Origin: Actinomycetota bacterium
GTDB lineage: Bacteria > Actinomycetota > Actinomycetes > Streptosporangiales > Streptosporangiaceae
Direction of reading: 5' to 3'
DNA length: 64,000 nt
Assembly (NCBI GenBank): GCA_027313705.1
Contig: DAHVDE010000005.1
Location: 1 to 64,000 of the forward strand
Below the pieces are notes generated by a model that saw nothing but the letters and a program-made list of their open reading frames with translations, ran no database searches and was not told where the DNA came from. A program made the translations under genes and the position numbers. Positions within the stretch are counted from its first letter, which is position 1; each line of letters opens with the position of its first letter. Of this stretch, positions 2,257 to 28,257 are shown in pieces.

Positions 2257-2372
2257 CGGCTTAGCCAACTGTCGCCGGTCAGTCAGGCCCGCCGGCAGGG
2301 AACTAGGTCTCTCCTCGGCGGGACTGACGTCCTCAACCGGTCAACCGCCAGGAGACCGGCCATCCCCATTAA

Positions 2373-2386
2373 AGGACTTTCGGCCC
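2373..2386 (+). promoter_or_regulatory. DosR/DevR-like box
   Basis: AGGACTTTCGGCCC matches the DosR-type palindrome (GGGAC, four bases, GNCCC). It ends 37 nt before the ATG of the gene at 2424, which has no ribosome binding site. That spacing would put the box at the -35 region of a leaderless transcript. It could also act on the divergent cytochrome b gene. Confidence 0.6.
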
Positions 2387-2423
2387 TGCGTGACCAGGCC
2401 GCCATTGCGCCATCCTTGGACCC

Positions 2424-3074: not shown

Positions 3075-3692
3075 CTACAGCAGGTCCTGTCCCCCGTTCC
3101 AGGCCAGCCTGACCCTGGCGCCGTCTGACCGCTCGAGTTCGTCTATCGCCGCCGCGACCTGGTCCCTGGCCTGCTCGAGGCCGGGTATCAGCCGGTCTTT
3201 GACGGCGCGCAGCCTTACCCTGGTGGCGGCGGATTCCGCCGTCATGATCTGGAGCGCCCTGGCGGCGGCCGCGTACCTGACTGCGGCGTCTAGCGCCGCC
3301 TGGTGCGCCTGCCTTGCGCGTGTCACCGACGGCCCGCTCCAGGGGACCTGGTCATCGGGCGGGGTGCAGGTGGCGCCGGCCGGCCGCCTGACCCCCATCG
3401 TGGTGGCGAAGCGAACGGAGACGTCGGCGTAGCCGCGGCCGGCCGCCAGGCGGATGTCTTGCTGGCCGCCGAGCAGCGACGCGATCAGCAGTGCGCGGTC
3501 GGCGTCCCTGGCGCGGTCGTGCCATTCGCGCTCGGCCTGCGCGGCGGCAGCGGCCAGCCCGGCCAGGTCCGCCTGGAGAATGCGGAGCTTGCGGTCAAGC
3601 AGGTCCGCGCCGCGGCTGGCGGCCGCCAGCCGCCGTTCCAGCCACAGCCGCCCGGCGCGGCCGGGCGGGGCGGTGATCTTCCGGCCGGTCAC
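3075..3692 (-). CDS. V/A-type ATPase subunit D (central stalk)
   Basis: This 205-residue protein matches the V/A-ATPase D subunit. That subunit forms the antiparallel coiled-coil rotor shaft inside the A3B3 head. The N-terminal pattern GRAGRLWLERRLAAASRGADLLDRKLRIL is the usual conserved opening helix. A second long helix (RVRLRAVKDRLIPGLEQARDQV) occupies the C-terminal third. It is the last gene of the nine-gene operon, and its ATG overlaps the stop of subunit B by 4 bp (ATGA). The order A–B–D is the standard one for bacterial and archaeal V/A-ATPases. Confidence 0.88.
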   Translation of the reverse strand: MTGRKITAPPGRAGRLWLERRLAAASRGADLLDRKLRILQADLAGLAAAAAQAEREWHDRARDADRALLIASLLGGQQDIRLAAGRGYADVSVRFATTMGVRRPAGATCTPPDDQVPWSGPSVTRARQAHQAALDAAVRYAAAARALQIMTAESAATRVRLRAVKDRLIPGLEQARDQVAAAIDELERSDGARVRLAWNGGQDLL

Positions 3693-5077
3693 GGGTAGTA
3701 CCTGTCCACGGCGCTCGCGGAGATCATCGTCAGGTCGCGCCTGGGCAGCACGCCGAGCACCTGCCAGGCAAGGCGCAAGGTTTCCGCTAGCGTGCGTGAC
3801 TCGGCCGGGCCCTGGTTCATCAGCGTCGTCTCGAATGCCTGCTCGAACCGGATCGCGCGGCGGTCAGAGTCGCCGAGCGCGGCCGACCCGATCAGTTCAG
3901 AAAGCTCGCGGGCGCGGCGGGCTGCAGCCAGGGCGGCGAGCGTCTGGGCGGCGACATCGAGGTGATCGTCCCTGGTGCGGCCGGGACCGGCACCGTGCCG
4001 CATCAGCCTTGACAGCGAGGAAAGCGCGTCGACCGGCGGGTAGATCCCCCGTGCGTGCAGGTCGGCGGACAGCACGAGCTGCCCTTCTGTGATGTAGCCG
4101 GTCAGGTCGGGCACCGGGTGCGTGATGTCGCCCGACGGCATGGTGAGCGCGGGCACCATGGTCAGCGAGCCTGGCAGCCCTTCGATCCTGCCGCACCGCT
4201 CGTAGAGGGAGGCGAGGTCGCTGTACAGGTAGCCGGGGTAGGCGCGCCTGGCGGGCAGTTCCCCCCTGGCCATCGACACTTCGCGCAGCGCCTCGCAGTA
4301 GCTGGTCATGTCCGCCATCACCACCAGTGCGTGCCTGCCGAGGGTGAACGCCAGGTGCTCGGCCACGGTCAGGGCCAGCCTCGGGGTGAGGATGCGCTCG
4401 ATGACCGGGTCGTCGGCCAGGTTGATGAAAAGCACCAGGTCGCCGGCCGCCGACCGTTCTTCGAGTATGGCCCTGATCACCGCCGCGTCGGCGTGCGTCA
4501 GCCCCATCGCGGCGAAGACGACGCTGAACGGCTCGCCCTGCGCTGACGCCTGCGCGGCGATCTGGCCGGCGAGTTCAAGGTGAGGCAGCCCCGCCACCGA
4601 GAAGATCGGCAGCTTCTGGCCCCTGACCAGGGTGGTCAGCTCGTCAATGACCGAGATGCCGGTCAGCACCGGCTCGGCGGGCGGCAGCCGCAGCGCAGGA
4701 TTGACAGGGAAGCCGGCGACCGGCATGGTCAGCTCGCCGGTGACCGGCGGCCCGCCGTCCCTCGGCTCGCCGCGGCCCGAGCACACCCGCCCAAGCCACT
4801 GCGGGCCGACCGCGATGCGCAGCGGGCTGCCGGCGAACTCGATGCTCGTGTCATTCGGGTCCATGCCCGCCGTGCCTTCGAGGACCTGGATCACCGCGAG
4901 GTCGCCGTTGACCTCGAGCACCAGGCCGTGCCTGAGCTCGCCGGCGCCAAGCCTGATGGAAGCGAACTCGTCCCACCCGACGCCCTTGACGCCGCGCGCG
5001 ATCAGCAGCGGGCCCCTGAGCTGCTCCACGGCGGTGAACTCCGGCCTTGCCCACCCGCCGCCCGCCGTCTCAGTCAT
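3689..5077 (-). CDS. V/A-type ATPase subunit B (non-catalytic head subunit)
   Basis: This 462-residue homologue of the V/A-ATPase B subunit forms the regulatory nucleotide interface with subunit A. Typical segments are GISVIDELTTLVRGQKLPIFS, VVFAAMGLTHADA, MADMTSYCEALREVS and GYLYSDLASLYERCGRIEG. A Walker A motif is absent, as expected for B. The ATG at 5077 gives MTETAGGGWARPEF and overlaps the 3' end of the A gene by 8 bp. A longer in-frame extension exists, but it lies inside the A gene and has no family similarity, so it was not used. Confidence 0.93.
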   Translation of the reverse strand: MTETAGGGWARPEFTAVEQLRGPLLIARGVKGVGWDEFASIRLGAGELRHGLVLEVNGDLAVIQVLEGTAGMDPNDTSIEFAGSPLRIAVGPQWLGRVCSGRGEPRDGGPPVTGELTMPVAGFPVNPALRLPPAEPVLTGISVIDELTTLVRGQKLPIFSVAGLPHLELAGQIAAQASAQGEPFSVVFAAMGLTHADAAVIRAILEERSAAGDLVLFINLADDPVIERILTPRLALTVAEHLAFTLGRHALVVMADMTSYCEALREVSMARGELPARRAYPGYLYSDLASLYERCGRIEGLPGSLTMVPALTMPSGDITHPVPDLTGYITEGQLVLSADLHARGIYPPVDALSSLSRLMRHGAGPGRTRDDHLDVAAQTLAALAAARRARELSELIGSAALGDSDRRAIRFEQAFETTLMNQGPAESRTLAETLRLAWQVLGVLPRRDLTMISASAVDRYYP

Positions 5078-6830
5078 GACCGGGCTCGCGCTGGCCAGGT
5101 GCGGTGATCGGTTTCTCGCGCAACTCGGCGAGCACCGCGTCGGCGATCTCGCGGACGCGCCCGGCGGACGGGGCGTCTTCCTTTGCCCGCAGCAGCGGCG
5201 AGAAATCATGGTCCTCGAGCTGGTCTGCGGGCACTCCGAGACCGGCGAGTTCCAGGCAGCGGCCGGAAACGGCGAGCACCGCGTCGGCCAGCGCGGCCGC
5301 GCGCGCCTGATCGCAGTAGGCGTCGGCCTGGCTGAGCGCGCTCTGCTGCAGCACCCCCTCGCGTACCAGGCGCCCGGCCAGTATCGCGATCCGCTGGCGC
5401 GGCGGCAGCGCGGAAGCGCCCATCAGCTCGGCAAGCTCCCCCGCCCGGTCAGCCTCGGCCAGCAGCGCGGTCAGGCTGGCCCGTCGCGCAGCCCAGCCGG
5501 GATCGCCGTTCCTCGCGTGCCAGCCGGCGATAAGGCCGGCGTCGCGGGCGAACGACCCGGCCCAGGATACCGCCGGGTAATGCCTGGCGTAGGCCAGGTC
5601 GCGGTCGAGCGTCCACAGGCTGCGCACGAACCGCTGGGTGTAAGAGGTCACCGGTTCTGTCATGTCGCCGCCGGCCGGCGAAACCGCGCCGATGATCGTG
5701 ATCGAGCCTTCCTGGCCGCCGAGCGTGGTGAACCTGCCTGCCCGTTCGTAGAACGCGGCCAGTGCCGAAGCCAGGCTCGCCGGGTACCCTTCCTCCGCGG
5801 GCATCTCGCCGTTGCGCGAGGAAAACTCGCGCAGGGCCTCGGCCCATCTGGACGTGGAATCCGCGACCACGACCACGTGCAGCCCCATGTCCCTGAAGTG
5901 CTCGGCCACCGCGGCGGCGCTGTAAATGCTGGCTTCCCTGGCCATCATCGGCATGTTGGAGGTGTTGGCGATGATCACGGTGCGCCCGGCCAGCCTGCCT
6001 CCGGTGCGCGGGTCGGTCAGCCCGGCCAGTTCGGTAAGCATCTCGGCCAGTTCGTTGCCGCGCTCGCCGCAGCCGACATAGACGATGACGTCGGCATCGC
6101 ACCATTTGGTGATCTGCTGAAGCAGCACTGTCTTGCCGGTGCCGAACCCGCCGGGCACGGCGCTCGTGCCGCCGCGAGTGACAGGGAAGAGCACGTCGAT
6201 CACCCGCTGGCCGGTCTGCAGCGGCGCGTCAGGGCCAAGCCGCCGCGCCACCGGCCTGCGCTGCCTGACCGGCCAGGAGCTGACCAGCGGCACCTGCGTG
6301 CCGCCGACGACGGCGATGACGTCCTGCCCGGTCACCTGGCCGGCCGGACGCAGCCGCCGCACCTGGCCGGAGGCGTCCGGCGGCACCAGGACGAGGTACC
6401 TGACGCCGCCGGGGGCGGACACCGCGCCGAGCGCCGCCCCCGGCCCGAGATGGTCCCCTTCCCTGGCGGAAGGCGTGAACGCCCAGGCGAGGTCCTGACC
6501 TGAACTGGGCAGGGAACTGGCCGCCGGGTCGAGCCAGGCGGGCGCGCCCGCCAGCGGCCTCAGCAGCCCGTCGAATACGGCGCCGAGCAGGTGCGGCCCG
6601 AGCCTGCCAGACAGCTGCTCGCCCAGGCTGACTGCCTCGTCGCCGGGTGCCACGCCGCCGGTGTACTCATAGGCCTGGACAGTGGCGGTGCCGCCGTTGA
6701 TCGCGACGACCTCGCCCGGCAGCCGGTGCTCGCCCACCTGCACGATCTGCGACATGGCGATCCCGGTGAGCCCTGTCACCTCAACCAGCGGGCCGCTGAC
6801 CCGGCTGACCTGCGCGGCCGTTCCGCTCAT
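5070..6830 (-). CDS. V/A-type ATPase subunit A (catalytic)
   Basis: This 586-residue catalytic subunit hydrolyses or makes ATP. The P-loop GGFGTGKT lies at about 227–234, with the catalytic lysine at 233. It is followed by YVGCGERGNE, NTSNMPMMAREASIYS and DSTSRWAEALREFS, all diagnostic of V/A-type A subunits. The characteristic non-homologous insertion of about 90 residues lies between the N-terminal barrel and the P-loop. The start ATG at 6830 overlaps the subunit E stop (ATGA). Full length and intact motifs argue for an active enzyme. V/A-type enzymes are uncommon in Actinomycetota, which normally rely on F-type ATP synthase. Confidence 0.95.
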   Translation of the reverse strand: MSGTAAQVSRVSGPLVEVTGLTGIAMSQIVQVGEHRLPGEVVAINGGTATVQAYEYTGGVAPGDEAVSLGEQLSGRLGPHLLGAVFDGLLRPLAGAPAWLDPAASSLPSSGQDLAWAFTPSAREGDHLGPGAALGAVSAPGGVRYLVLVPPDASGQVRRLRPAGQVTGQDVIAVVGGTQVPLVSSWPVRQRRPVARRLGPDAPLQTGQRVIDVLFPVTRGGTSAVPGGFGTGKTVLLQQITKWCDADVIVYVGCGERGNELAEMLTELAGLTDPRTGGRLAGRTVIIANTSNMPMMAREASIYSAAAVAEHFRDMGLHVVVVADSTSRWAEALREFSSRNGEMPAEEGYPASLASALAAFYERAGRFTTLGGQEGSITIIGAVSPAGGDMTEPVTSYTQRFVRSLWTLDRDLAYARHYPAVSWAGSFARDAGLIAGWHARNGDPGWAARRASLTALLAEADRAGELAELMGASALPPRQRIAILAGRLVREGVLQQSALSQADAYCDQARAAALADAVLAVSGRCLELAGLGVPADQLEDHDFSPLLRAKEDAPSAGRVREIADAVLAELREKPITAPGQREPGHD

Positions 6831-7369
6831 GGCCCGGCCGCCCGGCTCGTCCGCTGGCAAAGGGCGGCCATGTCAGGCCCGAGCGCGCTGATCGCGCGAT
6901 CAGCCAGCCTGGGCAGCGAGCAGTCGACCGTAACCCCTGCCGCCGTGGCCACGGCACCGCCGTCTGGCGGCTCCCTGATCAGCGCGCCCGGGCCGGCGGC
7001 GCCCGCCGCGAACCTGGCCAGCCGCGCCGCAAGCGCGGGATAGTCAGGCGCGGAACGCAGGCCGAGCACGGCGTTCCTGATCCGCCCGGCCAGGTACTGA
7101 TACGCGGCCAGGTCAGAGCCGAGCAGGCGTTCCCTCGCTGACCTGCGGCTGGCGCCGAGCCGCGCCGAGGCGATCAGGCGCGCCTGGGCCCGTCCGTCGT
7201 CGCCGGCCAGCGCGGCCGCACGTGCGGCGTCCTGCTCCGCCCGGCCAACCATCGCGCCTGCCGCGTCGCGCGCCTGCTGCACGATGGAGTCTGCCCGCTC
7301 TTCCGCTTGCCGCAGAAGTGCCGCCCTCACCGGTTCGATGGCCTCTTCCTGCCAGGAACGCGGCGTCAT
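6827..7369 (-). CDS. V/A-type ATPase subunit E (peripheral stalk)
   Basis: This 180-residue protein has an Ala/Arg/Glu-rich N-terminal helix of about 75 residues (RAALLRQAEERADSIVQQAR…). A compact C-terminal domain follows (LAAYQYLAGRIRNAVLGLRS…), the layout of subunit E. With the G/H-like coiled coil it would form the stator connecting head and membrane part. The sequence itself is only weakly conserved, and the call leans on position between subunits F and A. It overlaps both neighbours by 4 bp. Confidence 0.75.
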   Translation of the reverse strand: MTPRSWQEEAIEPVRAALLRQAEERADSIVQQARDAAGAMVGRAEQDAARAAALAGDDGRAQARLIASARLGASRRSARERLLGSDLAAYQYLAGRIRNAVLGLRSAPDYPALAARLARFAAGAAGPGALIREPPDGGAVATAAGVTVDCSLPRLADRAISALGPDMAALCQRTSRAAGP

Positions 7370-7608
7370 GACGGCGACCAGTCACTTGCCTGCGGCAGGA
7401 CCACCGGCATCACATCTGGCCGCGAAGGCAGTTCTGCTGCCAGCCAGTCAGCCGCCTGCGGTGTCAGCACGACGACGGCGACATCGGCAGGAAGCGCCCG
7501 CCATCCGCGCAGCGCCTCGGGCTTGCCCGAGGCCGGGCATAGCAGCGCGCCTGCCAGTCCGTAGCCGAAGATGCGAAGCGGCTCCCCGATCACTGCGGCT
7601 CTCGCCAT
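7366..7608 (-). CDS. V/A-type ATPase subunit F
   Basis: This 80-residue protein resembles the small F subunit, which sits on the central rotor and modulates activity. The N-terminal strand-turn ARAAVIGEPLRIFGYGLAGA and the strand VAVVVLTPQAADWL fit the CheY-like fold of this family. At 80 residues it is shorter than the usual 100 or so, lacking part of the C-terminal helix. It overlaps subunit E by 4 bp and lies 4 bp after subunit K. Confidence 0.72.
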   Translation of the reverse strand: MARAAVIGEPLRIFGYGLAGALLCPASGKPEALRGWRALPADVAVVVLTPQAADWLAAELPSRPDVMPVVLPQASDWSPS

Positions 7609-7612
7609 CGGC

Positions 7613-8035
<423 letters not shown>

Positions 8036-8046
8036 TCACGCCTCCT

Positions 8047-9429
8047 TCAGGAAACGCCGGCGGAGCCGGCCAGATCGTTAGTGCCCCTATCGATTCTCGG
8101 CCGCCAGGGCCTGAAAGCCCGGCCTTGAGTGACGAACACGCGGGAGAAGAGCTCGTAGTACTCAAGCCGCAGTGCCTGCACGGCCGCGACCAGCCCTTCG
8201 AGCGCGAAAGCCAGGGCACCACCCGCCAGGAAGAGGACGACCGCGAGCACGGCCATGACTCCGCCGCGGTGCCAGAGCGCCCGTGTCCCCTCCCACACCA
8301 GCAGTCCGAGCGCCGCGTGCGCCAGCCCGAATGCCGCCAGCCTGGCGAACGAGGCGATATTGGCGCCAAGCCGGATGACCAGGTCGAACAGCTCGACGCT
8401 GGCCTGCAGGTACCCGTACCCGCCGCCGCCCGCGCTCGCCGCGGACCCGGTGAAAGCCACGGCGAGCGCCGCCACCGCGAGCGCCGCGCCGCCGGCGGCC
8501 AGCACGGAGTGGTGAAAGTAATAGCCGGCGCCGGCCAGTCCGATGGCAGCGAACAGCGCCGCGCCTGCCAGTCCTGACGGGGCGTAAAGGGCCGCGGCCA
8601 AGCCGCCTTCCAGCCACCTGTTGATCACCCCGAGCAGGTATGCGCCCGCGAGCAGCACCACCCCCGCGGCGAGGCCGGCGACCAGCAGGCGCACCGGGCT
8701 GGCGATGGGGCTGAGCCAGAGCACGGGCAGCAGTCCGGTCGGCCCGAAGAACTCGCCGTAGGCGAAGCCGAACAAGATGGCGGCCACGCCGGCTCCGGCC
8801 GCGAACGGCCAGGCGGAACGGTAACGCCTCGCCAGCCGCGGCCGGCCTGCGGCCATCGCCACGGCGGCGGCGATCAGCAGCAGGCCGTCTCCGACGTCGC
8901 CGAACATCATCCCGAACATGAGCGCGTAACTCCCCCAGGCCAGCCAGGCGGGATTCACGTCCCGGTAGGGCACGGTGCCGTAGGCGGTGACCAGCGGGGT
9001 GAGTGCCCGGCGCCCGGCCGGGCCTGTTACCAGAGTCGGCGGATCGGCGGCGGCCGGCCAGCGGAGCGGGACGACGGCGCAGCCGATGACGGCAAGTTCG
9101 GCGCGCAGCGGCGCTACCTGGCTGGCCGGGATCCAGCCCGTGAGGGCGGCGGCGCCGTGCCTGCTGGCGGCCCCGGCCGCGTACTGCCTGAGCTGCGTCT
9201 CACCAGCGACCAGGTCCGCCCGGCCGCCCGCAGCGGGTTCACGCAGTTCCAGAGTCCGCAAGGACAATGCGGCCCGGTCGCCGCTTGCCTGCGGCGGCGG
9301 CTGGGCGGTGTCGATCTCCACCGTTCCTGCCGCCGCCACCTTGACCAGCAGGTCACGCAGTGACCCGGACGGCGCCACCAGGGCTACCCTGGTCATCCGG
9401 GCCGGCAGAAACCGGTCAGACCACCGCAT
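8047..9429 (-). CDS. V/A-type ATPase subunit I/a (membrane stator)
   Basis: This is the 460-residue homologue of the 116-kDa/I subunit, which forms the ion half-channels against the c ring. The cytoplasmic N-terminus (about 170 residues) is followed by seven or eight TM helices. Conserved features are GMMFGDVGDGLLLI, FGFAYGEFFG and the helix SFARLAAFGLAHAALGLL, whose arginine (about 363) corresponds to the essential channel Arg. It is clearly shorter than the usual 630–680 residues because the N-terminal stator-binding domain is reduced. The start ATG at 9429 overlaps the preceding gene by 14 bp; a second ATG at 9396 is possible. Confidence 0.9.
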   Translation of the reverse strand: MRWSDRFLPARMTRVALVAPSGSLRDLLVKVAAAGTVEIDTAQPPPQASGDRAALSLRTLELREPAAGGRADLVAGETQLRQYAAGAASRHGAAALTGWIPASQVAPLRAELAVIGCAVVPLRWPAAADPPTLVTGPAGRRALTPLVTAYGTVPYRDVNPAWLAWGSYALMFGMMFGDVGDGLLLIAAAVAMAAGRPRLARRYRSAWPFAAGAGVAAILFGFAYGEFFGPTGLLPVLWLSPIASPVRLLVAGLAAGVVLLAGAYLLGVINRWLEGGLAAALYAPSGLAGAALFAAIGLAGAGYYFHHSVLAAGGAALAVAALAVAFTGSAASAGGGGYGYLQASVELFDLVIRLGANIASFARLAAFGLAHAALGLLVWEGTRALWHRGGVMAVLAVVLFLAGGALAFALEGLVAAVQALRLEYYELFSRVFVTQGRAFRPWRPRIDRGTNDLAGSAGVS

Positions 9430-10363
9430 CGAACACCTCGATCGAGCCGCCGCCGCGCGCGGCGAGTTCAAGTGCCGACCGCACCCTTCTGGCGTCGGCG
9501 GCCAGCACCGCGACCGAGCCGATGACCGGCTTGGGGTCAAGGCCGGTCCCGGAGAGCAGCCGCTGGCCGTCCTGCTCGACGCGGTGCCACCAGGCCGCCT
9601 CACCCTGCCATGGCTGCCATGACCCCGGCGTGTCACCGAGGACCCAGCGGACCCGGGCCGGAAGGTCGCGCGCCAGCACGGTCACCGTGCCCGCGCCCGC
9701 CGCCGTCGGCCCGAGCAGCCTGGACGCGACGGTCGCGAGCACCGGGCTGGCCGGCCGCCTGCCGCAGGAGAGCTCCCCGGCCAGCAGCAGCGCCACCGCG
9801 GCCGCCGCCCAGGTGCCTGCCGGGTCGCCGAGAGCGGAGACCCGCTCAGCCCAACGAGCCCGCAGGCCGATCATCAGGGCACCGGCCGTGTCACCGCCAG
9901 GATCCCGCCATGCGGAAGCCGCAAGCACCGTCCTGACGGCGGCCAGGTCATGGCAGTCGCGTAGCCTCGGCCAGGCGGTGGCCAGCGCGCCAAGATCGAA
10001 GTAGCTGTCCTGGCCGCCGCCGGGCGGCGAGGCCAGCCGCTCGGCCAGGTTGGCGATCTCGAACCATCCGGCAAGCGCCCGCATCAGCGGTGTGCCGCCC
10101 CTTGGCAGCCAGCCGGCCAGTACCCGCAGGTTCCACAGCAAGCCAGCCCCGATCGCATGCTGCCGCGCCGCGAGCAGTTCCCTGACGTCGAGGAGTGGCG
10201 GCGGCTGTCGTTCCTGCGGCTGGTGATATGCGGTCGTGGCGAGCATCGAGAGCGCGGCGGCGAGCGAGCCGCAGCCGGCCACCCGCCTGGCCTCGCCCGC
10301 GCCGATGCGCCGTCGGGCAAGCACCCGCGCCCTGACGCTGCCTGCTGCCCAGCCCGCGCTCAC
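9416..10363 (-). CDS. Probable V/A-type ATPase subunit C/d
   Basis: This 315-residue, mostly helical, Ala/Leu/Arg-rich protein starts at a GTG that overlaps the previous stop (GTGA). Its position and size suit subunit C, the socket that links rotor shaft and c ring. It shows recurring helices with the pattern of that family (RELLAARQHAIGAGLLWNLRVLAGWLP…). Similarity is faint, so the assignment rests mainly on operon context and on no other gene in the cluster filling this role. The order C before I differs from the common I-K-E-C-F arrangement. Confidence 0.6.
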   Translation of the reverse strand: MSAGWAAGSVRARVLARRRIGAGEARRVAGCGSLAAALSMLATTAYHQPQERQPPPLLDVRELLAARQHAIGAGLLWNLRVLAGWLPRGGTPLMRALAGWFEIANLAERLASPPGGGQDSYFDLGALATAWPRLRDCHDLAAVRTVLAASAWRDPGGDTAGALMIGLRARWAERVSALGDPAGTWAAAAVALLLAGELSCGRRPASPVLATVASRLLGPTAAGAGTVTVLARDLPARVRWVLGDTPGSWQPWQGEAAWWHRVEQDGQRLLSGTGLDPKPVIGSVAVLAADARRVRSALELAARGGGSIEVFDAVV

Positions 10364-10782
10364 GGCACGGACTTCACGAATTCGATGGCCTGGTCGATCA
10401 GCGCCAGGACGTCGGTTTCCGCTGGCAGTGCCCTGGCTCGCACGGCCTCGTCGGCGGCCTGCAGCAACTGGCTCTGCCGTGCCCCCGCCAGCGCCATGAC
10501 CTCGGCGGCCGCCGTCTTCCTTGCCTCGTCCGCCTGCCGGCTGCCCAGGGCCGTGATACCTGCCGCCTTCTGCGCCGCCTCGCTCATCAGCCTGGCGGCT
10601 TCCTGCTCGGCTGCCGCGATGACGCCTGCGCACCGCTGATCGGTGCTCGCCAGCAACTCGAGCACCGGATCAAGCTCGGCGGCCAGCGCCGCCGCCTTGT
10701 CTGCGGGCACGGCCGCCGCGGCGGCCGAGCCAGGCACGCTGGCTGGCCTGAATCTCGTCAGGAAATCGCTGAACTGCGCCAC
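10360..10782 (-). CDS. V/A-type ATPase G/H-like peripheral stalk subunit
   Basis: This 140-residue protein opens the ATPase operon. GTG at 10782 is preceded at 6 nt by GGAGG. Residues about 45–120 form an unbroken Ala/Glu/Gln-rich helix with heptad character (GVIAAAEQEAARLMSEAAQKAAG…). That matches the coiled-coil G/H subunit that pairs with E. The short C-terminus DVLALIDQAIEFVKSVP is also typical. The upstream region is shared with the divergent hsp20 gene and contains two DosR-like boxes. Confidence 0.72.
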   Translation of the reverse strand: MAQFSDFLTRFRPASVPGSAAAAAVPADKAAALAAELDPVLELLASTDQRCAGVIAAAEQEAARLMSEAAQKAAGITALGSRQADEARKTAAAEVMALAGARQSQLLQAADEAVRARALPAETDVLALIDQAIEFVKSVP

Positions 10783-10885
10783 TCCTGGCCTCCTTCGGCG
10801 GCATTTTGTCGCCTGAGTACCTGGCGGGCGGAGCCGCCTGCGCCATTTCTCCATCAGATCAGCACCGGCAGGCAGGAAGGCAACA

Positions 10886-10899
10886 GGGCCAATGGACCC
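10886..10899. promoter_or_regulatory. DosR/DevR-like box, distal site in the ATPase–hsp20 divergent region
   Basis: GGGCCAATGGACCC (reverse GGGTCCATTGGCCC) has two-fold symmetry and the 5-4-5 layout of DosR boxes. It lies 103 nt upstream of the ATPase operon start and 88 nt upstream of hsp20. Confidence 0.5.
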
Positions 10900-10906
10900 G
10901 CCGGGC

Positions 10907-10920
10907 GGGACTTTCGGCTC
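10907..10920 (+). promoter_or_regulatory. DosR/DevR-like box, hsp20-proximal
   Basis: GGGACTTTCGGCTC has a perfect left half-site and one mismatch in the right half-site. It lies 67 nt before the hsp20 ATG, and hsp20 has a leader with an AAAGGAG ribosome binding site. Together with the box at 10886 it forms a tandem pair, as seen at strongly DosR-dependent promoters such as mycobacterial hspX. Confidence 0.6.
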
Positions 10921-10987
10921 TGCCGGCCGGGCACCGGCCGGCGATCCGATGAAGACGTGGCTAGGCACTCTGCGAAAGGAGATAGTC

Positions 10988-11404
10988 ATGCCCAAGCTGG
11001 CACACAGAGGGTCAAGGTTTCCCGACCTGCTCGACTGGGGCGAATCGCCCTGGGCGACGATGATGCCGTTCTTCCCAGGGCAGAGCTTCAGGATCGAGGA
11101 CTTCGAGACTGAAGGCCGCTATGTCGTCCGGGCCGAACTCGCAGGCCTTGATCCGGAGAAAGACATCGATGTCCTGGTTCAGGACGGCATCTTGTCGATT
11201 CACGCGGAAAGGCGCGAGGAGAAGAAGGAGAACGGCCGTTCTGAGTTCCGCTACGGGTCGCTGAGCCGCTCGGTGTCCCTGCCGCCTGGCGCTGAGCCCG
11301 ACAAGGTGACGGCGAACTACGACAAGGGCATTCTCGAGGTGTCCGTCCCGGTCTCGCCTGCCAGGGCAGGAGGCCTGCACGTGGAGATCGAGAAATCTGC
11401 TTGA
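10988..11404 (+). CDS. Small heat shock protein, Hsp20/alpha-crystallin family
   Basis: This 138-residue ATP-independent holdase chaperone has an alpha-crystallin domain spanning about 35–130 (SFRIEDFETEGRYVVRAELAGLDPEKDIDV…). It includes the closing strand pair YDKGILEVSVPV. The N-terminal arm is short (PKLAHRGSRFPDLLDWGESPW), as in mycobacterial HspX/Acr-type proteins. ATG at 10988 has AAAGGAG 6 nt upstream. Two DosR-like boxes precede it, and it is divergent from the ATPase operon. HspX is a hallmark of the DosR dormancy response in mycobacteria, so this is probably a functional counterpart. Confidence 0.93.
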   Translation: MPKLAHRGSRFPDLLDWGESPWATMMPFFPGQSFRIEDFETEGRYVVRAELAGLDPEKDIDVLVQDGILSIHAERREEKKENGRSEFRYGSLSRSVSLPPGAEPDKVTANYDKGILEVSVPVSPARAGGLHVEIEKSA

Positions 11405-16990: not shown

Positions 16991-18637
16991 ATGGCGCTGA
17001 CCGGTGCACCCAAAGACCGCGACCTGACGCCCCTGGTCGACCTGCTGCACGGGCGGGCCTTCACCGGGCCGGCCAGGGACCAGCGGCCGGTGTACGTGGA
17101 CTTGCTGCCGCCTTGCAATGCCGCCTGCCCGGCCGGGGAGAACATCCAGGCCTGGCTGGCGCACCTGCAGGCAGGCAGGCCTGAAGAAGCCTGGCGCCAG
17201 CTCACCGCGGACAATCCGATGCCCGCCGTCCACGGCCGGGTCTGCTATCACCCGTGCGAAACCGCGTGCAACCGTACCGGCCTGGACAGCGCGGTCTCGA
17301 TTCACGCGGTCGAGCGGTTTCTCGGCGACCTGGCCATCGACCGGGGCTGGCGGTTGCGCAGGCCGGCCAGCAAGACAGGCAAGCGGGTGCTCGTGATCGG
17401 CGCGGGCCCTAGCGGGCTCTCCGCCGCCAGCCACCTTGCCATGGCCGGCCACGAGGTCGAGATCAGGGACTCGGGCGGCGAGCCAGGCGGGATGATGCGG
17501 TACGGCATCCCCGCTTACCGGCTGCCCAGGGACGTTCTCGATGCCGAGATCGCAGCGATCACCGCTCTCGGCGTCGTGATCACCTGCGGGCACCGGGTCG
17601 AGGACCTGGCCGCGGAACGGCGCGACGGCCGGTTCGACGCGGTGTTCGCGGCCGTCGGCGCGCACCTGTCCAAGCGAGTCGACATCCCGGCCAAGGACGC
17701 GGGCAGGATCGTCGATGCCCTGGCCTTCCTGCACAGCGTCGCGGAAGGCGATCGGCCGGCGATCGGCAGGCGGGTCGCGGTGTACGGAGGCGGCAACACC
17801 GCGATGGACGCGGCCAGGGTGGCCAGGCGGCTCGGCGCGGACGACGCCCTGATCGTCTACCGGCGCACTCGCGCCCAGATGCCCGCTCACGCGCAAGAGG
17901 CGGAAGACGCCGAGCAAGAAGGGGTGCGCATCAACTGGCTGCGCACCATCACCGCCTTCGACGGGCCTGAGCTGACCGTCGAGGAAATGGAACTTGACGA
18001 GCACGGGTTCCCCAGGCCTACCGGCAGGCTGGAAAACCTCGCCGCCGACACCGTGATACTGGCGCTCGGCCAGGACACCGACGCCAGCTTCCTGCGCCGG
18101 GTGCCTGGCGTGGAGTTCGAGCGGGACGGAACGGTGCGGGTGTCGCCTTCGATGATGACCGGATGCGCTGGCGTCTTCGCGGGCGGCGACATGGTACCCG
18201 CCGAGCGCACCGTCACCGTCGGCACCGGCCACGGCAAGAAGGCCGCGGCCAACATCGACGCCTGGCTGCGCGGCGCCGCGCCGCCAGGGCACGACAAGCA
18301 CCCGCTGGTGGCCCTTGACCAGATGAGCCTGTGGTATTTCGGCGACGCGGCGCGACGCGAGCAGCCGCAGGTGCCAGCGCAGTGGCGCACCAGCGGCTTC
18401 GCCGAGGTGACCGGCGGGCTCACCGAGGAACATGCGGTGTACGAGGCGGGCCGCTGCCTGTCCTGCGGCAACTGCTGCGAGTGCGACGGCTGCCTGGGTG
18501 CCTGTCCCGAGGACGCCGTCATCAAGCTCGGGCCAGGGCACCGTTACCGGTTCGACTACGACCGCTGCACCGGCTGCGGAATCTGCTACGACCAGTGCCC
18601 GGTGCACTCGATCGAGATGATCACGGAGCGTGGGTAA
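16991..18637 (+). CDS. GltD/NfnB-like NAD(P)H oxidoreductase with C-terminal ferredoxin domain
   Basis: This 548-residue iron-sulfur flavoprotein is homologous to the glutamate synthase small subunit. The N-terminal cluster-binding segment has PPCNAACPAGENIQAWL and CYHPCETACNR. Two dinucleotide folds follow: RVLVIGAGPSGLSAASHLAMAG at about 138 and VAVYGGGNTAMDAARVARR at about 264. The C-terminus carries 8-iron ferredoxin motifs CLSCGNCCECDGCLGACP and CTGCGICYDQCP. No GltB is present. The gene is coupled (TAATG) to pyruvate:ferredoxin oxidoreductase, so its likely job is electron transfer between reduced ferredoxin and NAD(P). It starts without a Shine-Dalgarno sequence downstream of a DosR-like box. 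Confidence 0.88.
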   Translation: MALTGAPKDRDLTPLVDLLHGRAFTGPARDQRPVYVDLLPPCNAACPAGENIQAWLAHLQAGRPEEAWRQLTADNPMPAVHGRVCYHPCETACNRTGLDSAVSIHAVERFLGDLAIDRGWRLRRPASKTGKRVLVIGAGPSGLSAASHLAMAGHEVEIRDSGGEPGGMMRYGIPAYRLPRDVLDAEIAAITALGVVITCGHRVEDLAAERRDGRFDAVFAAVGAHLSKRVDIPAKDAGRIVDALAFLHSVAEGDRPAIGRRVAVYGGGNTAMDAARVARRLGADDALIVYRRTRAQMPAHAQEAEDAEQEGVRINWLRTITAFDGPELTVEEMELDEHGFPRPTGRLENLAADTVILALGQDTDASFLRRVPGVEFERDGTVRVSPSMMTGCAGVFAGGDMVPAERTVTVGTGHGKKAAANIDAWLRGAAPPGHDKHPLVALDQMSLWYFGDAARREQPQVPAQWRTSGFAEVTGGLTEEHAVYEAGRCLSCGNCCECDGCLGACPEDAVIKLGPGHRYRFDYDRCTGCGICYDQCPVHSIEMITERG

Positions 18638-21600
18638 TGCGAGCCGCCGTTGACGGCAACGAGGCCGCGGCCAGCGTCGCCTACCGGCTGAACGAGGTGT
18701 GCTGCATCTATCCGATCACCCCGTCATCGCCGATGGCGGAACTGGCCGATGAGTGGTCGAGCAGGAAACGGCAGAACCTGTGGGGCACCGTCCCCGTCGT
18801 GATCGAGATGCAGAGCGAGGGGGGCGCGGCCGGTGCCCTGCACGGCGCGCTCCAGGGCGGCGCGCTCGCGACCACGTTCACCGCCTCCCAGGGCCTGCTG
18901 CTGATGATCCCGAACCTGTACAAGATCGCCGGCGAGCTGACCTCGGCGGTCATCCACGTGGCGGCCCGCTCGCTGGCCGCCCAGGGGCTGTCGATCTTCG
19001 GTGACCACAGCGACGTGATGGCGGTCAGGCAGACCGGGTTCGCGCTGCTTGCCTCGGCATCGGTGCAGGAGGCGCACGACCTGGCGCTGGTCGCGCAGGC
19101 CGCCGCGCTCCGCGGCCGGGTGCCTTTCCTGCACTTCTTCGACGGGTTCCGTACCTCACACGAGCTCAATACGATCGAGTTGCTTTCCGACGACGACCTG
19201 CGCGCGCTGGTTCCCGCCGAACTCGTCCGCGCTCACCGGGCTCGCGCCCTGTCGCCTGACCACCCGTTCATCAGGGGAACCGCGCAGAACCCTGATACCT
19301 ACTTCCAGGCCCGCGAGACGGTCAATCCTTACTATTCGGCGCTTCCAGGCATCGTGGCGAGGGAGATGAACGCGCTGGCCGCCCGCACCGGCCGGAAGTA
19401 CGAACTGGTCAGCTACGCCGGCGACCCGCAAGCGGACCGGGTGATCATCTCGATGGGCTCGGCCGCGCAGACCGTCGGCGAGACCGTGCGCTACCTGTGC
19501 GGACGCGGGGAGCGGGTCGGCGCCCTTACGGTCAGGCTGTTCCGGCCATTTCCCGCGGCGGCGCTGCTCGGCGCCTTGCCGCCGTCGGTAAGCAAGATCG
19601 CCGTACTCGACCGCACCAAGGAACCGGGATCGGCTGGCGAGCCCTTGTTCCTCGACGTGACCGCCGCCCTCGCGGACAGCAGGGACTTTTCGCCGCCAGG
19701 AAGCTTTCCGCTGATCACCGGCGGGCGATACGGGCTGTCGTCGAAGGAGCTCACCCCGGCCATGGTCCTCGGCATCTTCGCCGAGCTGGCCAGGGACGTC
19801 CCGAGGCGGCGGTTCACGATCGGGATCGAAGACGACGTGACCGGCATCAGCCTGCCCTACCGGCCAGGACTCGACATCGAGCCGCCAGGCACGGTCCGCG
19901 CCGTCTTCTTCGGACTCGGCTCTGACGGCACGGTCGGCGCGAACAAGAACACGATCAAGATCCTCGGCGCCGAGCAAGACCTGCACGCCCAGGGCTATTT
20001 CGTCTACGACTCCAAGAAGTCGGGCTCGCAGACGGTCTCGCACCTGCGTTTCGGCACGGCACCGATCCTGGCGCCCTACCTGGTGGAGCAGGCCGGCTTT
20101 GTCGGCTGCCACCATTTCGGCCTGCTCGACCGGGTGGACGTGCTCGGCCGTGCCGCGCCGGGCGCAACCTTGCTGCTTGACTGCCCGGCGCCGCCTGAGG
20201 CGGTGTGGGACGCGCTGCCCCGGCCGGTCCAGGAGAAGATCATCGCCAAGCAGGTCAGCGTCTACGCCATCAACGCCAGCCAGATCGCCCGCGAGGCCGG
20301 CCTGCCAGGCCGGACCAACACCGTGCTTCAGACCTGCTTCTTCGCCATCTCGGGCGTGCTGGCGCGTGACCAGGCAATCGCGAAGATCAAGGACTCGATC
20401 ACCAGGACTTATGCCAGGCGCGGCGCCGAGGTGGTCAGGCGCAACCACGACGCCGTGGACCGCGCGCTCGACGGGCTGCACAAGATAGCGGTTCCCGGCC
20501 TGGTGACCTCGGTCAGGGAACTGCCGCCCGCCGTGCCTGCTACCGCGCCCGCGTTCGTGCGCGAGGTGACCGCGCAGATGCTGGCCGGCCGGGGCGACGA
20601 ACTGCCGGTCAGCGCGCTGCCCGCCGACGGGACCTATCCGAGCGGCACCGCCGCCTACGAGAAGCGCAACGTCAGCGACCTGGTCGCCTGCTGGGAGCCC
20701 GATCTGTGCATCCAGTGCGGCAACTGCAGCTTCGTCTGCCCGCACGCCGTGATCAGGTCGACCTACTACGACAAGGAACTGCTCGCCGGAGCCCCCGCGG
20801 GCTTCCAGTCCGCGCCTTTGGACGCGCGCGGGCTGCCAGACACCAGGTACACGCTCCAGGTGTACGCGGAGGACTGCACCGGCTGTGAACTGTGCGTGCA
20901 GGCGTGCCCGGTATCGGCGCCTGGCGGCGGCCGCAAGGCGATCAACCTGAAGGAACGGCCGCCGATCGTGGAAGCGGCCAGGGAGAACATCGCCTTCTTC
21001 GAAACCCTGCCGGTCGCCGACCGGTCCAGGGTAGATTTCGGCACGGTTCGGGGCACTCAGTTCCTCCAGCCGCTCTTCGAGTTCTCCGGCGCCTGCGCGG
21101 GCTGCGGCGAGACGCCCTACCTGAAGCTGCTCTCCCAGCTTTTCGGCGACCGGCTGCTAGTGGCCAACGCCACCGGATGCTCCTCCATCTACGGCGGCAA
21201 CCTGCCGACCACGCCGTGGACCTTCAACAGCGAAGGCCGGGGTCCTGCCTGGTCGAACTCGCTGTTCGAGGACAACGCCGAGTTCGGCCTCGGGTTCAGG
21301 CTGGCCGCCGACCGGCACGCGGAGATCGCGAGGACCAGGCTGGCCGAGCTAGGCGACCAGGTCGGCGCCGGGCTGGCCGCCGAGATCCTGGCCGCTCCGC
21401 AGCTGCGCGAGTCGGAGTTGCGTGACCAGCGTGACCGGGTCGCCGAGCTCAAGCGCCGCCTCGATGACCTGCGAGATCTCGGCCAGCCCGTGGCTGACCT
21501 GCTCAGCGTGGCCGACCATCTGGTGCGGCGGAGCGTCTGGATCGTCGGCGGTGACGGCTGGGCTTATGACATCGGGGCAGGCGGCCTGGACCACGTGCTG

Positions 21601-22218
21601 GCCAGCGGGCGGGACGTGAACGTGCTCGTGCTTGATACCGAGGTCTATTCGAACACCGGCGGGCAGGCATCCAAGGCCACGCCGCTCGGCGCGGTCGCCA
21701 AGTTCGCGGCGGCAGGCAAGACCATGCCGAAGAAGGACCTGGCGCTGCAGGCCATCGCCTACGGGTACGTCTACGTCGCCAGGGTCGCCATGGGCGCCGA
21801 CCCGCAGCAGACCCTGCGCGCGTTCCGCGAAGCCGAGGCTTACGAAGGTCCGTCGCTTGTCATCGCCTACAGCCACTGCATCGCGCACGGCATCGAGATG
21901 CGCGACGGCCTTGACCAGCAGTACCGGGCAGTGGCCAGCGGCTACTGGCCGCTGATGCGCTACGACCCCGTGCTGCGCACCCGAGGAGACAACCCGTTCC
22001 TGCTCGATTCGCGAAGGCCGCGCATCCCGCTGGCCGACTACACCGGCAGGGAGCTTAGGTACCGCGCCCTGGCCACCAGCGACCCGGCCGAAGCCGAGCG
22101 GCTCGGGCTGCTCGCGCAGCAGGCCGCCGACCAGCGCTGGGACGTCTACGAGGAGATGGCAGGGCGCGGTCCGGCCAGTTTCCAGGCCGATGCGAGGAAG
22201 GCTGGCCAGAGCCGATGA
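18637..22218 (+). CDS. nifJ: Pyruvate:ferredoxin (flavodoxin) oxidoreductase, single-chain
   Basis: This 1193-residue fused enzyme converts pyruvate + CoA + oxidised ferredoxin to acetyl-CoA + CO2 + reduced ferredoxin. The N-terminal domain I has EVCCIYPITPSSPMAE, then domains II and III (GLGSDGTVGANKNTIKIL). A 2x4Fe-4S ferredoxin domain follows (CIQCGNCSFVCPHAV, CTGCELCVQACPVSAP). The C-terminal TPP domain contains GDGWAYDIGAGGLDHVL and the Mg/TPP site NVLVLDTEVYSNTGGQASKATP. All domains and cysteines are intact. The enzyme is oxygen-sensitive and typical of anaerobes. Its ATG overlaps the upstream stop by 1 nt and its end overlaps the next gene by 4 bp, indicating one operon. Confidence 0.97.
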   Translation: MRAAVDGNEAAASVAYRLNEVCCIYPITPSSPMAELADEWSSRKRQNLWGTVPVVIEMQSEGGAAGALHGALQGGALATTFTASQGLLLMIPNLYKIAGELTSAVIHVAARSLAAQGLSIFGDHSDVMAVRQTGFALLASASVQEAHDLALVAQAAALRGRVPFLHFFDGFRTSHELNTIELLSDDDLRALVPAELVRAHRARALSPDHPFIRGTAQNPDTYFQARETVNPYYSALPGIVAREMNALAARTGRKYELVSYAGDPQADRVIISMGSAAQTVGETVRYLCGRGERVGALTVRLFRPFPAAALLGALPPSVSKIAVLDRTKEPGSAGEPLFLDVTAALADSRDFSPPGSFPLITGGRYGLSSKELTPAMVLGIFAELARDVPRRRFTIGIEDDVTGISLPYRPGLDIEPPGTVRAVFFGLGSDGTVGANKNTIKILGAEQDLHAQGYFVYDSKKSGSQTVSHLRFGTAPILAPYLVEQAGFVGCHHFGLLDRVDVLGRAAPGATLLLDCPAPPEAVWDALPRPVQEKIIAKQVSVYAINASQIAREAGLPGRTNTVLQTCFFAISGVLARDQAIAKIKDSITRTYARRGAEVVRRNHDAVDRALDGLHKIAVPGLVTSVRELPPAVPATAPAFVREVTAQMLAGRGDELPVSALPADGTYPSGTAAYEKRNVSDLVACWEPDLCIQCGNCSFVCPHAVIRSTYYDKELLAGAPAGFQSAPLDARGLPDTRYTLQVYAEDCTGCELCVQACPVSAPGGGRKAINLKERPPIVEAARENIAFFETLPVADRSRVDFGTVRGTQFLQPLFEFSGACAGCGETPYLKLLSQLFGDRLLVANATGCSSIYGGNLPTTPWTFNSEGRGPAWSNSLFEDNAEFGLGFRLAADRHAEIARTRLAELGDQVGAGLAAEILAAPQLRESELRDQRDRVAELKRRLDDLRDLGQPVADLLSVADHLVRRSVWIVGGDGWAYDIGAGGLDHVLASGRDVNVLVLDTEVYSNTGGQASKATPLGAVAKFAAAGKTMPKKDLALQAIAYGYVYVARVAMGADPQQTLRAFREAEAYEGPSLVIAYSHCIAHGIEMRDGLDQQYRAVASGYWPLMRYDPVLRTRGDNPFLLDSRRPRIPLADYTGRELRYRALATSDPAEAERLGLLAQQAADQRWDVYEEMAGRGPASFQADARKAGQSR

Positions 22219-23222
22219 ACCTCACGACCAGGTACCTGGGCCTCGAGCTGCGCAACCCGCTGGTTGCCTCTGCGTCACCGCTGTCGAACACGCTGGCGGG
22301 CATCCGCCAGCTTGCCTCCGCTGGTGTCGGCGCGATCGTGCTCTACTCGCTGTTCGAGGAGCAGGTACGGCGCCAGGCCGAGGAGGACGCGGCACTGGCG
22401 CGGGCGGGAACGGAGAGCTTCGCCGAGTCCCTGACCTACTTTCCTGACACGGCAGGCGATGACCTGGGTCCCCGGCACTATCTCAGCCTGCTTGAACGGG
22501 CCGCGGCCGCAGTGGACATCCCCGTGATCGCGAGCCTCAGCGCGGTCAGCGCCGGCGGGTGGACCGGCTACGCGTCGGCACTCGAGCGGGCCGGCGCCGC
22601 GGCGATCGAGCTGAACATCTATCACCCGTTCGGCAGTGCCCGGCAGGCGGGGCGCGATATCGAGCAGCGTCACATCGAGATACTCGCGGCGGTCAAGCAA
22701 GTGGTCAGCGTGCCAGTCGCGGTCAAGCTACACCCGTACTTCAGCTCGGTAGGTGAGTTCGCGCGACGGCTCGAGGATGCCGGGGCCGACGGGCTCGTCC
22801 TGTTCAACCGGTTCCTGCAGCCGGACATCGATCCGGAAACCCTGACCGTCACGGCCGGGTTCGGCTTGTCGAGCCCAGCCGAGGCGCGCCTGCCCAGGGC
22901 CTGGATCGCGTTGCTTTCCGGTCGGCTGCGCGCCTCGCTCGCGGCCACCACGGGGGTGTACGACGCCGTCGACGTGGCCACGTACCTGCTGGCGGGCGCC
23001 GATGTGGTGATGACCGCGTCGGCACTGATCAGGCACGGGCCAGCCTACGCCGCCGCGATGCTCGACGGGCTTTGCGCCTGGATGTCGCGCAAGGGTTTCG
23101 CCGGCGTGCCCGAGTTCCGCGGCCTGATGCGCGTCCCGCTCGGCGTCGACGAGCAGGCGGTCGAGCGCGCGGGCTACGTGTCGTTCCTGCAAGAAGCCAA
23201 CCGCGGGCTCGGCCCGTGGTGA
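22215..23222 (+). CDS. Dihydroorotate dehydrogenase-like FMN protein
   Basis: This 335-residue TIM-barrel flavoprotein resembles class 1 dihydroorotate dehydrogenase (opening LTTRYLGLELRNPLVASASPLS). Later segments AAIELNIYHP, VAVKLHPYFSSV and GADGLVLFNRF match strand ends that hold FMN and substrate. The usual DHODH phosphate-binding and active-site details are altered, so pyrimidine synthesis is not its likely role. Such DHODH-like genes often sit next to nifJ. The start overlaps the nifJ stop (ATGA). A redox partner or accessory role for the pyruvate oxidoreductase is inferred from this coupling. Confidence 0.85.
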   Translation: MNLTTRYLGLELRNPLVASASPLSNTLAGIRQLASAGVGAIVLYSLFEEQVRRQAEEDAALARAGTESFAESLTYFPDTAGDDLGPRHYLSLLERAAAAVDIPVIASLSAVSAGGWTGYASALERAGAAAIELNIYHPFGSARQAGRDIEQRHIEILAAVKQVVSVPVAVKLHPYFSSVGEFARRLEDAGADGLVLFNRFLQPDIDPETLTVTAGFGLSSPAEARLPRAWIALLSGRLRASLAATTGVYDAVDVATYLLAGADVVMTASALIRHGPAYAAAMLDGLCAWMSRKGFAGVPEFRGLMRVPLGVDEQAVERAGYVSFLQEANRGLGPW

Positions 23223-23270
23223 TCAGTACCGTGGCTTGCGGTAAACCCGCAGCCGGATGAGGAGATCTCG

Positions 23271-24797: not shown

Positions 24798-24878
24798 CGC
24801 TAGCTCCTTCACTCGCGGCCGGCCGGCGCTGCGGCGGCACCTAGGTACAGCTTTCGCCGGCCAGGGAGGGACAGGCAG

Positions 24879-24892
24879 GGGCCGAAGGTCCC
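24879..24892. promoter_or_regulatory. DosR/DevR-like box in Usp–synthetase divergent region
   Basis: GGGCCGAAGGTCCC is the core of a 21-bp inverted repeat (24875–24895, GCAGGG… to …CCCTGC) with one mismatch. It is the most symmetrical of the boxes here. It lies 58 nt before the ATG at 24951 and 81 nt before the Usp ATG at 24797, so it can serve both. Confidence 0.7.
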
Positions 24893-24950
24893 TGCGGCCA
24901 GGGACGGACTGCTCCTGCCCGCGCTGGCCGCGGCGGGGCACCCTTGACCT

Positions 24951-27671: not shown

Positions 27672-27707
27672 TCGTGGTGAATTCTGGTGGAGAAAGGATC
27701 GTAGAAA

Positions 27708-28202: not shown

Positions 28203-28203
28203 T

Positions 28204-28222
28204 CTTGCCTATAGCAGGCAAG
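28204..28222 (+). repeat. Short inverted repeat between two Usp genes
   Basis: CTTGCCT (28204–28210) and AGGCAAG (28216–28222) form a 7-bp stem with a 5-nt loop just after the first Usp stop. No T-run follows. It may be an mRNA-processing or stabilising hairpin within the operon. Confidence 0.35.
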
Positions 28223-28257
28223 CATTGCCCGAGCCAGAGCGCACAGAAGGAGGAGGC

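What the first reader, a model, noticed from the sequence alone, without database searches (positions are those of the whole stretch)
3075..10782. Complete V/A-type ATPase operon in a hypoxia island
Nine coupled genes encode a V/A-type ATPase with intact catalytic and ion-path residues (K233 in A, ring glutamate in K, Arg of subunit I). Actinomycetota normally use F-type ATP synthase. The operon is divergent from hsp20 with two DosR-like boxes between them, so it may be a dedicated dormancy ion pump that maintains membrane energy from fermentative ATP.
Basis: partly seen in the sequence, partly recalled or inferred. Interest (0 to 1): 0.75.

Follow-up and report, generated by a model that had tools for sequence, protein, structure and literature searches.

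The report
Dormancy-island V/A-type proton ATPase in actinomycetes
This actinomycete carries, besides its normal ATP synthase, a second complete rotary proton ATPase of a distinct, slimmed-down type whose genes repeatedly sit among the low-oxygen dormancy genes of different actinomycetes, so it probably helps cells keep their membrane energised when oxygen runs out.

Summary
Observation confirmed. Nine coupled genes (3075-10782, minus strand, order H/G-C-I-K-F-E-A-B-D) encode a complete V/A-type rotary ATPase. Subunits that sequence searches missed were supported by profile (E, H/G; F weakly) or predicted fold (C, I). The genome also has a full F-type operon, so the V/A enzyme is accessory. 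It lies in a real DosR-type hypoxia island: a DevR/DosR orthologue, Acg nitroreductase, three USPs, PFOR, an ACD/GNAT protein and a NAD(P)-type NiFe hydrogenase. New here: it belongs to a monophyletic (100/100), patchily distributed actinobacterial clade, distinct from archaeal/Thermus, clostridial and other-class actinobacterial V/A-ATPases. Its subunit I is shortened (413-514 versus about 650 aa), and the operon recurrently sits in DosR/USP/hydrogenase islands of Streptomyces, Nocardia, Streptosporangium and others (hydrogenase 7/16 genomes versus 0.19 expected; F-type operons, from listed hits, 0/16). DosR control of this particular promoter is only suggestive: two weak boxes here, strong OsdR-type sites before 4 of 21 relatives. 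Direction is untested. Best reading: a reversible proton machine, probably hydrolysing fermentative ATP to hold the proton-motive force while a hydrolysis-latched F-type enzyme cannot. "Actinomycetota normally use F-type" holds for this class, not the phylum.

The parts
10360..10782 (-). Subunit H/G (peripheral stalk), GTG start
   Evidence: Clade profile hits solved V-type subunit G, E 2.5e-6; SD and start
9416..10363 (-). Subunit C (Vo collar, d-like)
   Evidence: No sequence hit; AlphaFold model pLDDT 89 matches yeast Vo d Z 20.9 and Thermus C Z 18.3
8047..9396 (-). Subunit I (a), shortened: N-terminal domain about 120 aa plus membrane domain
   Evidence: PF01496; profile hits E. hirae subunit I 112 bits; fold match to Thermus/yeast a; both Arg conserved
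7613..8035 (-). Subunit K (ring); one C-terminal hairpin with one Glu
   Evidence: PF00137, NF004888; alignment A7
7366..7608 (-). Subunit F (short central stalk)
   Evidence: Clade profile weakly hits solved V-type F, E 0.003; position in operon
6827..7369 (-). Subunit E (peripheral stalk)
   Evidence: Clade profile hits solved V-type E, E 2e-5
5070..6830 (-). Catalytic subunit A
   Evidence: NF003220 629 bits, cut-off 470; catalytic motifs
3689..5077 (-). Subunit B
   Evidence: NF003235 589 bits, cut-off 349
3075..3692 (-). Subunit D (central stalk)
   Evidence: PF01813 81.5 bits, cut-off 25.7
10885..10921 (.). Two weak DosR/OsdR-like boxes (10885-10900, 10906-10921) between V/A and hsp20
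   Evidence: PWM 7.83 and 8.93, below published sites; the second is one of 9 exact GGGACYWWNGKCYC matches in 5.3 Mb
10892..11404 (+). hsp20, divergent from the V/A operon (ORF as listed; the true start may be the ATG at 10988)
   Evidence: PF00011 70.6 bits
11476..16396 (-). NiFe hydrogenase cluster: protease, large, small and NAD(P)-binding subunits, cNMP-binding and 4Fe-4S proteins
   Evidence: PF00374, ShyA/HydA, HydD and HydG-type NCBIfam hits
16991..24290 (+). NAD(P)-binding/PorD-like protein, pyruvate:ferredoxin oxidoreductase, DHODH-like protein, Acg-family oxidoreductase
   Evidence: TIGR02176 1666 bits; NF005741; NF047509 above cut-off
24878..24893 (-). Strong OsdR-type site AGGGACCTTCGGCCCC between USP and ACD/GNAT genes
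   Evidence: PWM 16.0; identical to the site given for S. coelicolor SCO0167 and SCO0216
24951..28695 (+). GNAT-ADP-forming acyl-CoA synthetase fusion and two universal stress proteins
   Evidence: Pfam; both ACD-type His motifs present
28710..29381 (+). DosR/DevR response regulator
   Evidence: Full-length match to M. tuberculosis DevR 3c3w, E 2.3e-82
2372..2387 (.). Strong OsdR-type site 37 bp before the SRPBCC-like gene at 2424, in the cytochrome-b intergenic region
   Evidence: PWM 14.17

Best explanation
The operon encodes a complete, accessory, proton-translocating V/A-type ATPase of a distinct actinobacterial lineage, carried as a module of DosR-type hypoxia/dormancy islands. Shown: all subunits and catalytic residues are present, an F-type synthase is retained, the lineage is monophyletic, subunit I is shortened, and co-localisation with DosR, USP, hydrogenase and nitroreductase genes recurs. 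Inferred: it is made when oxygen falls and uses ATP from the fermentative branch (PFOR, then the ACD-type acyl-CoA synthetase) to pump protons and hold the proton-motive force, a task the F-type enzyme could not do if its alpha C-terminal extension blocks hydrolysis as in mycobacteria. The ring keeps one carboxylate per hairpin, so it should also run as a synthase when respiration (nitrate, H2, cytochrome bd) supplies a modest gradient. My split is about 0.5 ATP-driven pumping, 0.3 low-gradient synthesis, 0.2 other.
For: F-type operon present; F-type alpha in 26 of 27 V/A genomes. Island content, DevR match. Hydrogenase within about 20 kb in 7/16 genomes versus 0.19 expected (P 1.5e-10) and USP in 8/16 versus at most 1.65 (P 6e-5); none of the listed hits lies near the F-type operons of the same genomes (read). 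DosR homologues 59-72% identical beside V/A in Nocardia alder85J, G395, G343, Streptomyces NBC_01450 and BHT-5-2. Strong OsdR-type sites before 4/21 operons versus 1.3% background, P 1.4e-4. cydAB next to V/A in G067; nitrate reductase and USP near it in S. fungicidicus. F-type alpha aligns with M. smegmatis alpha through residue 545, whose alpha533-545 causes latent hydrolysis (PMC8698299). The Na+ ligand Gln of E. hirae NtpK is not conserved in the ring (the NtpK ligand is from general knowledge).
Against: The window promoter has only weak boxes. Most relatives' upstream regions lack a strong site, and the first 14 tested gave no overall shift (P 0.2). Arthrobacter koreensis shows no dormancy neighbours, and G216 and G294 show no obvious ones. 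Gene neighbourhood is inherited, so the genomes are not fully independent. The F-type alpha extension is weakly conserved in the critical 533-545 stretch. The ring favours neither direction. No expression or activity data exist.
Confidence: 0.6

Rival explanations
1. It works mainly as a low-gradient ATP synthase: under hypoxia, residual respiration (nitrate, hydrogen, cytochrome bd) gives a small proton-motive force and a high proton/ATP ratio of the V/A ring lets it make ATP when the F-type enzyme cannot.
For: Single-hairpin K with one Glu per hairpin, as in the Thermus enzyme; respiratory neighbours: hydrogenase, nitrate reductase, cydAB.
Against: Ring size unknown. Many actinomycetes already run an F-type synthase in hypoxia (general knowledge). 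The island also encodes substrate-level phosphorylation, which would make a second synthase less needed.
Confidence: 0.3
2. The enzyme serves another stress, such as cytoplasmic pH homeostasis or spore/late-development energy supply, and sits in the island only because stress genes cluster there.
For: DosR-type islands hold general stress genes; OsdR also controls development in S. coelicolor (PMC5069765); Arthrobacter koreensis lacks the hypoxia neighbours.
Against: Repeated linkage to hydrogenase, DosR, nitroreductase, cydAB and nitrate reductase is specific to low oxygen.
Confidence: 0.2
3. The operon is a recently acquired, non-functional or neutral passenger of mobile islands and megaplasmids.
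For: Patchy distribution (15/395 in the class); copies on megaplasmids.
Against: All catalytic and ion-path residues conserved at 57-64% A identity across families; genus-wide retention (5/5); the tree broadly groups family members.
Confidence: 0.05

Closest known systems
Thermus thermophilus V/A-ATPase
   Same: Same nine kinds of subunit; single-hairpin proton ring; A, C, I and K homologous.
   Different: About 45% A identity to a Thermus enzyme, separate clade; Thermus uses it as its main synthase (general knowledge); this one is accessory, with subunit I about 200 aa shorter and the order H-C-I-K-F-E-A-B-D.
Enterococcus hirae Na+ V-ATPase
   Same: Accessory V-type enzyme beside an F-type one (general knowledge); closest solved subunit I by profile (8wci).
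   Different: Na+ ligand Gln not conserved here; the E. hirae ring subunit has two hairpins with one carboxylate (general knowledge).
Canonical V/A-ATPases of other Actinomycetota classes, Rubrobacter and Hakuba/OPB41 bacteria
   Same: V/A-ATPase in the same phylum (PMC7325909; OPB41 in PMC9686372, seen only in the search listing).
   Different: Different clade, with archaea and Thermus (the Hakuba sequence itself was not placed); the Hakuba one is Na+-type and without F-type genes (PMC7325909).
A/V-type genes of Melissospora conviva (2025)
   Same: A/V-type ATP synthase genes noticed as a gain in an actinomycete compared with Micromonospora (PMC12451618).
   Different: No hypoxia or DosR link proposed in the passages read; not compared here by sequence.
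OsdR/DevR dormancy regulon islands of S. coelicolor and M. tuberculosis
   Same: DevR orthologue, USPs, Acg-type nitroreductase, similar boxes.
   Different: The S. coelicolor regulon table in PMC5069765 lists no V/A-ATPase, and its text holds neither 'ATPase' nor 'hydrogenase'.

Membership tests
V/A-type rotary ATPase | Catalytic A with P-loop and catalytic Glu, B with arginine finger | tested here: met
   GGFGTGKT and GCGERGNE invariant in the clade, LSSLSRL in the window's B; NF003220/NF003235 above subfamily cut-offs
V/A-type rotary ATPase | Membrane ring subunit with conserved carboxylate and subunit I/a with conserved Arg | tested here: met
V/A-type rotary ATPase | Central stalk D, F and collar C | tested here: met
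   D by Pfam, F weak profile hit E 0.003, C by fold Z 18-21
V/A-type rotary ATPase | Peripheral stalk E and G/H | tested here: met
   Profile hits 2e-5 and 2.5e-6 to solved V-type E and G
V/A-type rotary ATPase | ATP-coupled ion transport | not testable with these tools
   No biochemical data
Known archaeal/Thermus/clostridial/other-class actinobacterial V/A lineages | Groups inside one of these clades | tested here: not met
   Own clade with 100/100 support and a long stem
Na+-type V-ATPase | Gln Na+ ligand in the ring | tested here: not met
   No Gln at the aligned position in any clade ring sequence; the position was set by hand against NtpK from general knowledge
DosR/OsdR regulon member | DosR orthologue in the same island | tested here: met
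DosR/OsdR regulon member | High-scoring DosR/OsdR site in the operon promoter | tested here: inconclusive
   Window 8.9, below the published minimum 12.8; relatives 4/21 strong
DosR/OsdR regulon member | DosR-dependent hypoxic induction | not testable with these tools
   No expression data

The most novel reading that the evidence does not exclude
A previously undescribed clade of V/A-ATPases with a minimal subunit I (possibly only one peripheral stalk instead of two) is the dedicated membrane-energising module of actinomycete dormancy: induced by DosR, it runs on fermentative ATP as a proton pump while the F-type synthase is latched against hydrolysis, splitting synthesis and hydrolysis between two enzymes in one cell.
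Probability: 0.25. Interest if true: 0.85.

Novelty: new variant of a known kind. Interest (0 to 1): 0.63.

Why it matters
How non-growing actinomycetes keep a proton-motive force without oxygen is a long-standing question, because the F-type synthase of their mycobacterial relatives is reported to be latent in hydrolysis. A second rotary ATPase wired into DosR-type islands would be a direct answer in the lineages that have it, and culturable hosts (Streptomyces fungicidicus, S. morookaense, Streptosporangium canum) make it testable. It also adds a distinct branch with a minimal subunit I to the V/A-ATPase tree; the public annotation of the S. fungicidicus copy calls three of its subunits hypothetical.

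Tried and rejected
The literal Mtb DosR consensus TTSGGGACTWWAGTCCCSAA gave no convincing sites. My own pattern GGGACYWWNGKCYC looked enriched upstream of V/A, but it was partly drawn from the same sequences, so I replaced it by a PWM from the published OsdR table. The OsdR PWM on the first 14 operons gave no overall shift (P 0.2). A phylum search with the subunit-I profile found only the window; only four candidates per genome were scored, so this negative is not used. P-loop GGFGTGKT as a clade marker was rejected: other lineages have it, and the search pattern itself favoured it. Na+ pump rejected on ring residues. Assembly artefact rejected: all five genus members have the gene. The first literature query failed on a slash; no paper linking V/A-ATPase to DosR was found in the held library.
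Full report
CHECK OF THE OBSERVATION. The nine genes at 3075-10782 are real, intact and coupled. Pfam and NCBIfam recognise A, B, D, K and I. Profiles built from relatives recognise E and H/G in solved V-type enzymes and F weakly. C has no sequence hit, but its predicted structure (pLDDT 89) is a V-type C/d subunit (Z 20.9 to yeast d, 18.3 to Thermus C). Catalytic residues and the ring and stator residues of the ion path are conserved across the lineage.

ACCESSORY STATUS. The genome (5.3 Mb, 98.9% complete, 4.3% contamination) has a complete F-type operon on another contig. Of 27 genomes with a V/A enzyme examined, 26 have F-type alpha; the exception is a 77%-complete genome. The F-type alpha aligns with the M. 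smegmatis alpha through residue 545. In mycobacteria alpha533-545 is reported as the main cause of latent ATP hydrolysis (PMC8698299). That stretch is only weakly conserved here, so latency of this enzyme is inference.

THE ISLAND. Between 10.9 and 29.4 kb lie hsp20, a NAD(P)-type NiFe hydrogenase cluster, pyruvate:ferredoxin oxidoreductase, a DHODH-like protein, an Acg-family oxidoreductase, a GNAT/ADP-forming acyl-CoA synthetase fusion, three universal stress proteins and a response regulator that matches M. tuberculosis DevR over its full length. This is a DosR-type island.

DISTRIBUTION AND LINEAGE. All five genus members have V/A subunit A (two of them in fragments). In the class 15 of 395 genomes have one. 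Trees of A+B and of A with other-class sequences place the window enzyme in an actinobacterial clade with 100/100 support and a long stem. The clade includes Streptomyces, Streptosporangium, Nocardia, Arthrobacter, Demequina and a Thermoleophilia MAG. It is separate from the archaeal/Thermus/Rubrobacter/other-class group and from the clostridial, spirochaetal and planctomycete groups. Root position and the affinity to a gammaproteobacterial MAG sequence (97/99) are not settled, and the outgroups were gathered by peptide pattern, so sampling is uneven.

ANATOMY. Subunit I is 413-514 aa in the clade versus 662 and 693 in canonical actinobacterial copies and about 650 in solved bacterial enzymes. 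The model keeps the whole membrane domain and a single compact alpha/beta N-terminal domain of about 120 residues instead of about 320. In Thermus the missing part carries a peripheral-stalk attachment (general knowledge), so one peripheral stalk instead of two is a possibility, not a result. K has one C-terminal hairpin with one Glu, no Na+-type Gln, and extra hydrophobic N-terminal sequence.

RECURRENT NEIGHBOURHOOD. In 16 genomes with the clade enzyme, a NiFe hydrogenase large subunit lies within about 20 kb in 7 (0.19 expected, P 1.5e-10) and a USP in 8 (at most 1.65 expected, P 6e-5). A ninth USP is adjacent in Demequina maris. The hydrogenase in G046 is of a different, full-length PF00374 type. 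The F-type operons of the same genomes have none of the listed hits nearby (read; the USP list was truncated). DosR homologues of 59-72% identity lie beside V/A in Nocardia sp. alder85J, G395, G343, Streptomyces sp. NBC_01450 and BHT-5-2. On the NBC_01450 megaplasmid the order is PatA-like, cNMP protein, DosR, V/A, hsp20, USP, hydrogenase. In S. fungicidicus plasmid p1 the operon is followed by a USP and a CBS protein, with nitrate reductase genes upstream; H, F and E are annotated 'hypothetical'. In G067 cydAB and a USP flank it. Phylogenetic non-independence makes the P values optimistic, but gene order differs between lineages.

REGULATION. With a matrix from the published OsdR sites (PMC5069765) the two best sites of the window are 24878 (identical to a site given for SCO0167 and SCO0216) and 2372. 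The V/A-hsp20 pair scores 8.9 and 7.8, below the published minimum of 12.8. Across 21 clade operons, four have a site of at least 12.75 within 300 bp upstream versus 1.3% of random windows (P 1.4e-4); the threshold was set near the published minimum after seeing the first results. The exact pattern GGGACYWWNGKCYC occurs nine times in the genome, among them the V/A-hsp20 region, the USP-PatA region, and just upstream of an SRPBCC paralogue and a P-type ATPase; its reversed control occurs five times, so the count alone is unremarkable. DosR control is therefore plausible, stronger in some relatives, and unproven here.

MECHANISM. The most economical reading is a reversible proton machine made for low oxygen. 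PFOR and the ACD-type protein (both histidine motifs present) would supply ATP, and the V/A enzyme would turn part of it into proton-motive force when the F-type enzyme cannot. Running as a low-gradient synthase with nitrate, hydrogen or cytochrome bd respiration is the main rival. Sequence cannot decide the direction.

PRIOR WORK. V/A-ATPases are known in Actinobacteria of other lineages (PMC7325909; PMC9686372, listing), and A/V-type genes were noted as a gain in Melissospora conviva (PMC12451618). I found no description of this clade or of its link to DosR islands in the held library; subscription papers are not covered.

Noticed in passing
window 2372-2966; L133:1501-2024: An SRPBCC-like protein (2424-2966) has a strong OsdR-type site 37 bp upstream; its 42%-identical paralogue on contig C6 also has an exact DosR-like box just upstream: a candidate DosR-regulated family.
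   Followed up: partly
L138:970-983 (G000:C59): A DosR-like box GGGACTTTCGTCCC lies about 59 bp before a P-type ATPase gene, reminiscent of ctpF in the Mtb DosR regulon.
   Followed up: partly
G648:C69, G678:C69, G501:C14, G610:C3, G696:C57: V/A subunit A of small-genome Actinomycetota is split into two hits inside one 1068-1151 aa frame near the P-loop, as expected for VMA-type inteins.
   Followed up: no
G651:C1:1504499-1506241: Subunit A of a canonical V/A-ATPase with one in-frame TGA.
   Followed up: no
G555 (C1:25903 and C1:1212713) and many other genomes: Many Actinomycetota of other classes carry two canonical V/A subunit A genes; in G555 they fall in different sub-lineages.
   Followed up: partly
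window 24951-27671: The GNAT/acyl-CoA synthetase fusion keeps both ACD-type histidine motifs (SHT, HKTEAGAVKL), so it could be an active ADP-forming enzyme and not only a protein acetyltransferase.
   Followed up: no
L072: A gammaproteobacterial MAG V/A-ATPase branches alone, nearest the actinobacterial clade (97/99).
   Followed up: no
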